A DNA stretch of 20,448 bases, from positions 1 to 20,448 of the IMG/VR virus record IMGVR_UViG_3300022888_000404; one strand, written 5' to 3'. The stretch comes from a virus. Positions 1 to 3,866 of the stretch are shown in pieces; positions within the stretch are counted from its first letter, which is position 1; every line of letters starts with the position of its first letter. The notes under the pieces are model-generated. The model had not been told where the DNA came from. It saw only the letters and a program-made list of their open reading frames with translations, and ran no database searches. The translations under genes were made by a program, and so were the position numbers.

Positions 1-165
1 ATGAGATACACCATACAATCCCAAATGAGACACACCAAACCATCAATAAATCTCATTCCACCATACCACCATACCAAACCATCAATGATGAATGAATCAA
101 AACCATCAATAAATCCCAAACCATCAATAAATCCCAAACCATACAATCCCAAAAATCCCAAACCA
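1..165. repeat. 18-bp direct repeat array (window edge)
   Basis: Two perfect tandem copies of AAACCATCAATAAATCCC lie at about 100-136. Partial or degenerate copies lie on both sides: the AACC core occurs at 38, 77, 101, 119, 137 and 161, with steps of 39, 24, 18, 18 and 24. A related piece, ACCATACAATCCCAA, occurs near 10 and near 138. Read on the minus strand the unit begins with GGTTTGGGATTTATTGAT. A plus-strand reading frame across the array would encode only a Lys-Pro-Ser-Ile-Asn-Pro repeat and is probably not a gene. The array may continue left of the window. Function unknown; an origin, a protein-binding array or recombination-prone DNA are all possible. Confidence 0.75.
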
Positions 166-1478: not shown

Positions 1479-1504
1479 CTTCCATATGAAAGCATTGAAT
1501 AGGT

Positions 1505-1635
1505 GGTTATCATTCTTTCTATGAATCACTTAATTTTTGGTTATCATGTGTCTAGTGGTTCACTATATGGGCATCATTACATGATTTGGTTCAATTTTCT
1601 GTTGTGGTTATTCTTAATAGAAAATGGTTAATCAC
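1505..1635 (+). repeat. degenerate 18-bp GGTT repeats, patch 1
   Basis: Units beginning GGTT start at 1505, 1539, 1557, 1588, 1606 and 1626. The commonest step is 18-20 bp; the longer steps of 34 and 31 leave room for one decayed unit each. Two forms are seen: A, GGTTATCAT (1505, 1539; variant GGTTATTCT at 1606), and B, GGTTCA followed by CT or AT (1557, 1588; degenerate GAATCACTT at 1523). A followed by B makes a composite unit of about 36 bp. The patch fills the gap between the 55-residue gene (stop at 1628) and the start of the 1212-1445 gene. Its frame contains stops, so it is not coding. Confidence 0.65.
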
Positions 1636-1795
1636 ACATACTATGTTTGGATACTTCATTCAGACTACGTGCCAACTCAAAAACCTCTGTCCCATATACT
1701 TCTCTGAGTACATCCTTGACAGATTTTGAATTAGTCACGTTTTCAATTTTGCCGAGAACTCTTGACAACAGCCTTATTTCATTCATACTTAGCAT
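1628..1795 (-). CDS. hypothetical protein (55 aa), coupled to upstream membrane protein
   Basis: A 55-residue leftward gene beginning MLSMNEIRLLSRVLGK. The frame stays open further upstream (to 1879), which would give 83 residues, but that extension runs across the 48-residue gene in another frame. I chose the ATG at 1795, which overlaps the stop of the 48-residue gene in the seven bases ATGCTAA, a standard translational-coupling arrangement. An ATG three codons later is a second option. The product is charged and helical with no membrane segment (NSKSVKDVLREVYGTEVFEL). No family recognised. It probably acts with, or is simply co-translated with, the membrane protein upstream. Confidence 0.6.
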   Translation of the reverse strand: MLSMNEIRLLSRVLGKIENVTNSKSVKDVLREVYGTEVFELARSLNEVSKHSMCD

Positions 1796-1935
1796 ATCAA
1801 TCCCAAAAGCATACCAATCCCAAAAGACAGAAGTACCCAAAATACTAATTCTGAATAATTGACTGTTTTTCCAGGACATATCATGGATGATGCATCATCC
1901 ATTTCTCTTCTCTCAGATTTTCTTCTCTCATCCAT
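1789..1935 (-). CDS. small single-span membrane protein (48 aa)
   Basis: A short gene with the best ribosome site in this stretch: AAGGAGA, then four bases, then ATG. It encodes 48 residues. The first 28 are charged and polar (MDERRKSERREMDD...), and residues about 30-48 form one apolar segment (LVFWVLLSFGIGMLLGLIC). The topology is therefore probably a cytoplasmic basic N-terminus with a C-terminal membrane anchor. Its stop overlaps the start of the 55-residue gene. A likely promoter lies at 1965-1993, and the repeat array lies just beyond it. No family is recognised. Small phage membrane proteins of this shape include superinfection-exclusion factors and holin-like proteins, but nothing here decides between them. 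Confidence 0.65.
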   Translation of the reverse strand: MDERRKSERREMDDASSMICPGKTVNYSELVFWVLLSFGIGMLLGLIC

Positions 1936-1964: not shown

Positions 1965-1993
1965 ATTATCATATACGCTGGTTCTATTGCCCA
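1965..1993 (-). promoter_or_regulatory. candidate sigma70-type promoter for the 48/55-residue genes
   Basis: On the minus strand, TGGGCA (1993-1988), a 17-bp spacer and GATAAT (1970-1965) match the -35 and -10 consensus at 4/6 and 5/6 positions. Transcription would start near 1958, leaving a leader of about 23 bases that includes the AAGGAGA ribosome site. Repeat units at 1980 and 1998 overlap or touch the -35 region, so a protein binding the array would affect this promoter. Confidence 0.45.
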
Positions 1994-2165
1994 GTATGGT
2001 TATCATCACGATGATGTTTCAATTCAGTGATACCTCCATAACTCAATGGAAGGTGGTTATCATGCGTATAATGGTTCATTCTATTAAGATGGTTGTCATT
2101 CATTGTGATGACTCAATTAAGTATTGTGGTTACCATATTTGACAGTGGTTCACTTCTTAATGTTG
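1980..2165 (+). repeat. degenerate 36-bp composite (A+B) GGTT repeats, patch 2
   Basis: GGTT-type units start at 1980, 1998, 2055, 2073, 2091, 2128 and 2147, with degenerate units at 2016 (GTTTCAATT) and about 2109 (TGACTCAATT). Steps are 18 or 19 bp, or multiples of this, apart from a 57-bp stretch (1998-2055). Form A is GGTTATCAT (1998, 2055), GGTTGTCAT (2091), GGTTACCAT (2128). Form B is GGTTCATTC (2073), GGTTCACTT (2147) and the two degenerate ones. Forms alternate A-B, so the true period is 36-37 bp (2055, 2091, 2128). Only about nine bases of each 18-bp unit are conserved. This is the layout of an iteron or operator array and is not a CRISPR. Confidence 0.7.
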
Positions 2166-2219: not shown

Positions 2220-3113
2220 CTACACAATCATTCCCCTACTATATTCATTTCTGCACCCAGGTTGAGAACGAGGATTATCTTCTGCCTTAATCCATTCAGG
2301 TGGAGCCACATAATCCTTATGTCCTAAAATGTCAATAACATATGGCATTGGTGGTGGCTTCCCATGTGACAAGGTATAGTAAACTTCAAAGAAATGACTC
2401 AAAAACATTTTTGTTGCATACCTTTTCGCCCTCATGTGTATATGTCCATCAGAAAGTTTACCAGAGGCATAGGCTTTGTAGGTTGGACAGTTTGTGTCTT
2501 TGAATGTCTTTTTCCTTAGTATTCCCTTTGCCTGATCTTTATAATCAAAGTTGTTATTTTTCCCAATCTCATATTCTTTTCTACGTCTATAGATGTCTTG
2601 GTAAAAGCTGTTACTGCTCTTGACAAATACCTCTCCTATATTGAAGCACAATTTTTTGACATCAGGATTCCATTTTATCTTTTCATTCCTTTTTCGTTCT
2701 TGTCCAGGAACTAAACCAGCATATGATATAAGTTGTCCTGCGCTGTTGATCTTGTTTATGTCTACATAGGCTACCATTCCAGCGATTATGATTGGACCAA
2801 GTCCTTTAACATTAACAGCCCATTCTGTCCATATGGGTTGTTGTTCAACCCACTTCTTCAAAGCTTTCTTGATCTGGTTCTCAAATTTCTCAAACTCATT
2901 AAAAGCCCAAGTCCAGAATTGATTTGGCATCTGTTCCTTCAATAGAGCTTGGTATCTATTGCTGACTTGAATTCTAGTCTCCTGTATTATATAATATGTT
3001 TGAACAAGAAACTTGACCTCTTTGTCTGTCATGCTTTGCATGGATTGTAGAATATCTTTTGATAGTTTATCTACTCCACCAAATACTTCCTTCATATCAT
3101 CTTTGTCATACAT
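2220..3113 (-). CDS. IS110-type Transposase_20 domain protein without DEDD domain (297 aa)
   Basis: The central part matches the C-terminal (Transposase_20) domain of IS110/IS116/IS902 transposases. A helix-hairpin-helix, VKGLGPIIIAGMVAYVDI, lies at about 102-119, followed by the family signature SAGQLISYAGLVPG at 124-137, then the basic stretch and helix (KRNEKIKWNPDVKKLCFNIGE). A later segment (HMRAKRYATKMFLSHFFEVYY, 226-246, then GKPPPMPYV and LGHKDYVAPP) ends the domain. IS110 enzymes also have an N-terminal RuvC-like DEDD nuclease domain. Here residues 1-100 are helical and lack it, and the QSG serine motif usually following GL-P appears replaced by GQER. It is therefore probably a DNA-binding domesticated relative and not an active transposase. 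The ribosome site AGGAGGAAAACA is excellent. It is third in an operon with a regulator and a 39-residue gene. Confidence 0.8.
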   Translation of the reverse strand: MYDKDDMKEVFGGVDKLSKDILQSMQSMTDKEVKFLVQTYYIIQETRIQVSNRYQALLKEQMPNQFWTWAFNEFEKFENQIKKALKKWVEQQPIWTEWAVNVKGLGPIIIAGMVAYVDINKINSAGQLISYAGLVPGQERKRNEKIKWNPDVKKLCFNIGEVFVKSSNSFYQDIYRRRKEYEIGKNNNFDYKDQAKGILRKKTFKDTNCPTYKAYASGKLSDGHIHMRAKRYATKMFLSHFFEVYYTLSHGKPPPMPYVIDILGHKDYVAPPEWIKAEDNPRSQPGCRNEYSRGMIV

Positions 3114-3134: not shown

Positions 3135-3254
3135 TTATTTATTCTCATACCATTTCAACTCATACTCAAGTTGTTTGAGCAAGTTTTTTGTATTTAGTAT
3201 TTGATTAACTGCACAAGTTCTACCCTTCTTCAATTCATCCATGTTTCTACTCAT
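3135..3254 (-). CDS. small hypothetical protein (39 aa)
   Basis: A 39-residue gene starting MSRNMDELKKGRTCAVNQ and ending ELKWYENK. It has a strong ribosome site (GGAGGAAACT directly before ATG), and its ATG overlaps the TGA of the regulator gene upstream as ATGA. The next gene (IS110-domain protein) starts 21 bases after its stop. The peptide is charged and predicted helical, with a Leu-rich half (LNTKNLLKQLEYELKWY), so it may form a small coiled coil or bind a partner. The tight placement between regulator and IS110-domain protein suggests a shared role. No family recognised. Confidence 0.7.
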   Translation of the reverse strand: MSRNMDELKKGRTCAVNQILNTKNLLKQLEYELKWYENK

Positions 3255-3838
3255 AGTTTCCTCCAATATAAAATTGTCTTCTCTACTTTCAGTTCAACGA
3301 TATTTTCCTCCTGTAGCTTACCAAGCTGTCTTCTTATTGTTTCTTGACACATTGGTAATCTATTGGATATCTGACTTGTGGAGATAAAACTGGTCTTTGG
3401 AACACAGTTCATTATCATCTCTATCTTCTGTTTTTCTGTTCTTCTTCTATTATAACCCATGTTCTCCTCCACCTTTTGTCCAAAATCAGTTGGAATTTCA
3501 ATTTTTATGTAGTTAAACCCTTCATCACAAACCATGTCACCTGAAAAAACTAGTATATTATTATCTAGGATCAATATGTTATTGTTGTTCATAAACTCAA
3601 TATCTGGTTTTATCATTCCTCTTATCTTATTCACATATTCCATTCTGATCTTTTGTATTGTGAAGTGTTCTTCCAGTTTTTTGAATATATATAAATACCT
3701 CAACTCCACTTCATTAAATACCATCGTCCTGGTTTTACGTGAAACTGGCTTTAAGAATCCATAACTAACATATCTTCTGATCTTGTACCCAGGGATTTCA
3801 AACATACCTGAGGCTTGAGTACACGTCAAATACTGCAT
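3251..3838 (-). CDS. two-domain DNA-binding regulator, MerR-like N-terminus and winged-helix C-terminus (195 aa)
   Basis: The chosen start (MQYLTCTQASGMF) has the ribosome site AAGGGAG six bases upstream and lies 22 bases from the predicted transcription start. A longer frame to 3895 would run through the promoter. Residues about 3-50 (LTCTQASGMFEIPGYKIRRY, then SYGFLKP and FNEVELRYL) follow the MerR-type helix-turn-helix and wing pattern. Residues 50-75 are helical. The middle (about 80-130) is Asn/Ile-rich with strands. Residues about 133-195 look like a winged helix (STSQISNRLPMCQETIRRQL, then LQEENIVELKVEKTILYW). It probably controls transcription, possibly of its own operon. Its stop overlaps the 39-residue gene (ATGA). 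No metal-binding cysteine pattern typical of classic MerR sensors is evident. Confidence 0.7.
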   Translation of the reverse strand: MQYLTCTQASGMFEIPGYKIRRYVSYGFLKPVSRKTRTMVFNEVELRYLYIFKKLEEHFTIQKIRMEYVNKIRGMIKPDIEFMNNNNILILDNNILVFSGDMVCDEGFNYIKIEIPTDFGQKVEENMGYNRRRTEKQKIEMIMNCVPKTSFISTSQISNRLPMCQETIRRQLGKLQEENIVELKVEKTILYWRKL

Positions 3839-3866
3839 ATATTCTCCCTTTTCTGTAAAAAAAGCT

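What the first reader, a model, noticed from the sequence alone, without database searches (positions are those of the whole stretch)
2220..3113. IS110-type C-terminal domain on a phage protein that lacks the DEDD nuclease
Residues about 100-250 carry the helix-hairpin-helix and the SAGQLISYAGLVPG signature of IS110-family transposases, but the first 100 residues are helical and contain no RuvC-like DEDD pattern. The SG serine motif after GL-P appears replaced (GQER). IS110 enzymes are RNA-guided recombinases needing both domains, so this gene may be a domesticated nucleic-acid-binding relative. It sits in a well-formed operon and not in a mobile element, with a perfect ribosome site and no visible terminal repeats.
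Basis: partly seen in the sequence, partly recalled or inferred. Interest (0 to 1): 0.62.

Follow-up and report, generated by a model that had tools for sequence, protein, structure and literature searches.

The report
Phage TIGR-TasA RNA-guided DNA-binding system

Summary
The sequence observation holds, but the interpretation changes. The 297-aa protein (2220-3113, minus strand) scores 5.9e-53 (180 bits, cut-off 100) to NCBIfam's TIGR-Tas model. It scores only 2e-7, below cut-off, to IS110. Its predicted structure (pLDDT 90) matches TasH and TasR (Z 19-20) well ahead of IS110 recombinases (Z 13). It has about 28 residues before the Nop domain, so no RuvC, DEDD or HNH domain fits: it is a TasA.

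It lies in two segments (about 2152-1979 and 1634-1504) around two small ORFs. An alternating chain of six repeats is found; 500 shuffles never exceeded three. Most of the 57 newly found viral relatives also carry such arrays.

Likely mechanism: TasA plus tigRNAs bind and bend matching DNA without cutting. One spacer pair joins, by the published A+rc(B) rule, into 19 nt spelling "LGNHDE", the metallophosphoesterase signature. It matches three distinct viral phosphoesterase genes exactly, with no gap. This is a suggestive candidate target.

It is a new member of a known kind.

The parts
2220..3113 (-). tasA: 297-aa solo Nop-domain protein. Helices 4-27, 30-59 and 65-90 (coiled-coil region); RNA-binding C-terminal part about 100-276; no nuclease domain
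   Evidence: NCBIfam NF052498 5.9e-53 at residues 34-244; AlphaFold model pLDDT 90.4; Foldseek/VIA match to TasR and TasH
1979..2152 (-). TIGR array segment 1: edge repeats at 2152-2146, 2115-2109, 2078-2072, 2045-2039 (degenerate), 2021-2015, 1986-1979; loop repeats at 2135-2127, 2098-2090, 2062-2054, 2005-1997
   Evidence: repeat matches; alternating chain of 6 repeats against a maximum of 3 in 500 shuffles
1504..1634 (-). TIGR array segment 2: repeats at 1634-1625, 1593-1587, 1562-1556, 1546-1538, 1528-1522, 1512-1504; partly degenerate (one 5-nt spacer)
1987..2014 (-). Spacer pair U5: A = TCATCGTGA (2014-2006), loop TGATAACCA (2005-1997), B = TACTGGGCAA (1996-1987). A + rc(B) is the reverse complement of codons for LGNHDE (metallophosphoesterase signature)
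   Evidence: exact 19/19 match, gap 0, to three distinct phosphoesterase genes in IMG/VR contigs; reversed-order control gave one unrelated hit
1628..1935 (-). Two small ORFs between the array segments: 48 aa with a hydrophobic C-terminal helix (1935-1789) and about 55 aa (ending 1628); no convincing family match; link to the system unknown
   Evidence: read from the sequence; Pfam scan

Best explanation
The gene is tasA of a phage-borne TIGR-Tas system with a dual-repeat TIGR array. Inferred working: the array is transcribed with or after tasA and cut at the edge repeats, by an unidentified host RNase with TasA's help, into tigRNAs of about 34-37 nt (half edge, spacer A, loop, spacer B, half edge). 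A TasA dimer holds the edge and loop repeats through their UG...CCA boxes. Spacer A pairs with one strand and spacer B with the other strand of an adjoining DNA stretch, so TasA opens and bends the target without cutting it, because it has no nuclease. The likely effect is to block transcription or replication of foreign DNA (host or rival virus). One guide pair may be aimed at the conserved GNHDE codons of a metallophosphoesterase gene.
For: Family: NF052498 5.9e-53, 180 bits over a 100-bit cut-off, and no above-cut-off hit in 14 control genomes. PDB sequence match to TasR 9mty 8e-29 and TasH 4e-10. Structure: the best 11 Foldseek hits are all TasR/TasH; Z 20.2 TasH, 19.2 TasR, 13.5 ISCro4, 13.3 IS621. 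No nuclease: 28 residues before the Nop start, against 57-71 in TasH relatives, and TasR aligns only from its residue 111. Array: TGRYAACCA occurs 6 times, all in the array and on one strand, expected 1.1 in the whole window; chain of 6 alternating repeats against a maximum of 3 in 500 shuffles. Relatives: most of the loci found have arrays of about 36-nt units beside tas. Mechanism from Faure et al.. Target.
Against: Transcription, processing and DNA binding were not tested. The array is short and irregular (spacers 5-11 nt, one degenerate unit), so it may be decaying. Only one of the three spacer pairs scanned in viral contigs gave a coherent candidate target, and the true target genome is unknown. 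In Faure et al. a TasR in E. coli did not stop phage or conjugation.
Confidence: 0.9

Rival explanations
1. A domesticated or decayed IS110 recombinase that lost its DEDD domain and keeps only nucleic-acid binding.
For: Transposase_20 match at 102-139, 4.2e-5; PHROG 'transposase' annotation; fold similarity to IS621 and ISCro4 at Z 13.
Against: TIGR-Tas score is far higher, IS110 is below its cut-off, Tas structures match better, a guide array lies next to the gene, and the nearest relatives are viral TasA proteins with arrays.
Confidence: 0.03
2. A TasA whose array has decayed, so the protein is now non-functional or works in trans with another array elsewhere in the phage or host.
For: Repeats are imperfect, spacer lengths vary from 5 to 11 nt, one unit is degenerate, and the array is split by two small ORFs.
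Against: The tasA frame is intact with a good ribosome site. The closest relatives L011 and L012 carry long arrays that are also irregular, so irregularity seems normal for this branch. Boxes UG and CCA are kept in most repeats.
Confidence: 0.12
3. TasA is an RNA-guided regulator of the phage's own genes.
For: No nuclease; gene regulation is among the possible roles named by Faure et al..
Against: No spacer pair matches the window convincingly better than shuffled spacers. In relatives, 369 pairs against 0.72 Mb of phage contigs gave 0 exact and 9 one-mismatch hits, the same as shuffled partners. The window is only a fragment of its genome, so its own case is not settled.
Confidence: 0.1

Closest known systems
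TIGR-TasA with dual-repeat array (Faure et al. 2025, e.g. Flavonifractor plautii FpTIGR)
   Same: Solo Nop protein; adjacent array of alternating edge and loop repeats; split spacers; many are virus-borne
   Different: Edge repeat 7 nt against the published 8-12 nt; more irregular array; spacers mostly 9-11 nt (one of 8, one of 5) instead of a steady 9
TasR (PDB 9mty) and TasH (PDB 9vzx, 9w04, 21kl)
   Same: Same Nop fold (Z 19-20); same UG and CCA box motifs as TasR arrays
   Different: They carry N-terminal RuvC or HNH nucleases; this protein has none
IS110 family recombinases (IS621, ISCro4)
   Same: Related RNA-binding fold (Z 13); short Transposase_20 motif
   Different: They have a DEDD domain and a bridge RNA; no DEDD domain is present here and the guides are in a TIGR array

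Membership tests
TIGR-Tas (TasA) | Nop-domain protein of the Tas family | tested here: met
   NF052498 5.9e-53 above cut-off; structure match to TasH and TasR
TIGR-Tas (TasA) | Adjacent array of two alternating short repeats separated by short spacers (usually 9, up to 12 nt) | tested here: met
   Chain of 6 alternating repeats spaced 8-11 nt against a maximum of 3 in 500 shuffles; the array is irregular and one spacer (5 nt) is outside the range
TIGR-Tas (TasA) | Edge and loop repeats share box D (UG in TasR arrays) at the start and box C (CCA) at the end | tested here: met
   TGAACCA and TGATAACCA; some copies end in TCA, ACA or TTA
TIGR-Tas (TasA) | No nuclease domain (TasA as against TasR or TasH) | tested here: met
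   28 residues before the Nop start; all-helical N-terminus; TasH aligns only from its residue 64 and TasR from 111
TIGR-Tas (TasA) | Array processed to tigRNAs bound by Tas | not testable with these tools
   Needs expression and small-RNA sequencing
TIGR-Tas (TasA) | Tandem-spacer recognition of opposite DNA strands | tested here: inconclusive
   One pair fits the A + rc(B) rule on a conserved gene motif; the two other pairs scanned and the reversed control gave 0-1 hits each
IS110 recombinase | N-terminal RuvC-like DEDD domain | tested here: not met
   Residues 1-90 are three helices; the IS110 model matches only positions 202-263 of 343, below cut-off
IS110 recombinase | Mobile element with bridge RNA next to the gene | tested here: inconclusive
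   No Rfam match at 1400-2300 and no element ends seen; bridge RNAs need not all be in Rfam

The most novel reading that the evidence does not exclude
A nuclease-free phage TasA carries a tigRNA aimed at the catalytic-signature codons (LGNHDE) of a metallophosphoesterase gene of LpxH or similar type, so that the phage silences a phosphoesterase of its host or of a rival virus by RNA-guided DNA binding at a site that cannot easily mutate.
Probability: 0.3. Interest if true: 0.75.

Novelty: new member of a known kind. Interest (0 to 1): 0.45.

Why it matters
Natural targets and the biological role of TIGR-TasA are unknown (Faure et al. say genuine spacer targets are hard to identify). This locus gives a concrete target hypothesis that can be tested with one binding assay. 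The relatives gathered here also show fast change of guide spacers next to nearly identical TasA proteins, which bears on the open question of how TIGR arrays arise and change.

Tried and rejected
- Self-targets in the window: best matches have 3-5 mismatches, in general no better than shuffled spacers; U6 was the lowest at P = 0.03 among nine tests, in the wrong orientation.
- U1 21-nt pair in viral contigs: no hit. U3 18-nt pair: one hit in a hypothetical phage gene, taken as chance.
- BLAST of joined targets against named phages: nothing useful.
- Single-protein searches for close kin of TasA (viral and genome contigs) and of the terminase (viral contigs): none. Bacterial genome contigs with the three-sequence profile: none.
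- Stem-loop type array: the array RNA folds no better than shuffles (z -0.46 and -0.44), so the dual-repeat type was kept.
- Plasmid collection: no TasA relative. PADLOC: no match for TasA.
- Bacterial genomes could not be searched for the U5 target because no genome handle was available.
- Structures of Z about 8 and below (OPA1, a CRISPR effector and others) match mostly the long helices and were ignored.

Full report
What was claimed. The sequence facts are right: the ORF 2220-3113 (-) is intact, it has an AGGAGG ribosome site, Transposase_20 matches residues 102-139 at 4.2e-5, and the first 90 residues are helical.

What it is. Against NCBIfam the protein matches 'TIGR-Tas system RNA-guided endonuclease' at 5.9e-53 (180 bits, cut-off 100), residues 34-244 over model positions 2-213 of 215. 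The IS110 model scores 2.1e-7, under its cut-off. That Tas model covers only the Nop part, so its word 'endonuclease' does not imply a nuclease here; the 241-aa Microcystis phage protein, too short for an added nuclease, also passes it. PDB sequence search gives TasR 9mty at 8.3e-29 and TasH at 4.1e-10. An AlphaFold model built on 36 family members (pLDDT 90.4, pTM 0.85) matches TasR and TasH first, with Z 20.2 (TasH), 19.2 (TasR, 31% identity over 195 residues), 13.5 (ISCro4) and 13.3 (IS621). Only about 28 residues precede the Nop domain, against 57-71 in TasH relatives. It is therefore a TasA in the terms of Faure et al. 2025 (PMC12045711).

The missed array. On the same strand, starting about 70 bases after the tasA stop codon, repeats TGAACCA and TGATAACCA alternate with short spacers. 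TGRYAACCA occurs six times in the window, all here and all on the minus strand; shuffles give 1.1 on average and at most 4. An alternating chain of six repeats spaced 8-11 nt is present; the longest in 500 shuffled windows was three, seen in 6 of them. Both repeats begin with UG and most end with CCA, the box D and box C of TasR arrays. The array is in two segments with two small ORFs between them. It is irregular: spacers are mostly 9-11 nt, one is 8 and one 5, and one unit near 2038-2022 is degenerate. The RNA does not fold better than shuffles, so it is of the dual-repeat and not the stem-loop type. Salicola phage CGphi29 (the published SpTIGR) and a Microcystis phage show the same layout.

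Relatives. Two profile searches of IMG/VR gave 7 and 57 loci. Most have arrays of about 36-nt units next to tas. The window protein sits in a 12-member group (support 100/99) with L011, L012, L013, L016, L019, L022-L026 and L030. The arrays of L011 and L012 are long and also irregular, so irregularity alone does not show decay.

Targets. Rule used: the target's top strand reads spacer A followed by the reverse complement of spacer B, with a gap of 0-2 (orientation derived here from the reported 8-nt 3' overhangs and the C-5 rule in PMC12045711). No pair matches the window convincingly. In IMG/VR, U1 gave no hit and U3 gave one unremarkable hit. U5, whose spacers had been set before the scan, gave four stretches with exact 19/19 matches, all with gap 0. 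They represent three distinct genes (two of the four stretches are the same DNA, and two of the three genes are homologues at 79% DNA identity), and in all of them the site is the codons for LGNHDE or LGNHDD. The proteins match Metallophos, PF00149. The same halves in reverse order gave one hit in an unrelated sequence. That the join of two spacers reads through in frame into this well-known signature is unlikely by chance (my rough estimate is 0.001 to 0.01 after allowing for many possible motifs and pairs; this is not a computed P value). The matched contigs need not be the real targets: any phosphoesterase gene with these codons would match.

Self-regulation test. 369 spacer pairs of relatives were compared with 0.72 Mb of TasA-bearing viral contigs, their own included where fetched: 0 exact hits and 9 with one mismatch, against 4-9 one-mismatch hits (and one exact) for shuffled partners and 8 for reversed order. 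So there is no sign that these arrays aim at TasA-bearing phages or at their own genomes.

Mechanism. Shown here: family, fold, lack of nuclease, array grammar. From the literature on TasA, TasR and TasH: tigRNA processing, dimer, dual-strand pairing, DNA bend. Inferred: binding without cutting, giving a block of transcription or replication of foreign DNA; the phosphoesterase target.

Verdict. A new member of a known kind, filed as TIGR-TasA with high confidence, with a suggestive natural target.

Noticed in passing
L030 5005-6239 and L033 2117-3489: TasA proteins are 97.5% identical, yet of 33 and 39 parsed array units only one is identical (four within 3 mismatches): very fast spacer turnover without known adaptation genes.
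   Followed up: partly
L032 2827-3194 and L036 4813-5540: TasA 94.6% identical and flanks 85-89% identical in DNA, but 10 and 18 units share one identical pair.
   Followed up: partly
L011 4880-5030 and L015 785-870: L011 carries a 72-nt (two-unit) tandem duplication in its array that L015, from a closely related phage, lacks: arrays can grow by unit duplication.
   Followed up: partly
L016, L019, L030 N-termini of TasA: These TasA proteins have a short N-terminal stretch with CxxC pairs, like a zinc ribbon, before the Nop domain.
   Followed up: no
window 100-147 and 1791-1826: Two short tandem repeats (units AAACCATCAATAAATCCC and AGCATACCAATCCCAAA) share a similar ATCCCAAA word; meaning unknown.
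   Followed up: no
window 3251-3847 (-): Protein upstream of tasA with a weak N-terminal MerR-like and a C-terminal helix-turn-helix match, possibly a regulator.
   Followed up: no
L026 904-987 and L029 3854-3920: The tas reading frame overlaps the array (repeated RNP/SEP or CIP/CEP residues in translation), so the array begins inside or abuts the open frame.
   Followed up: no
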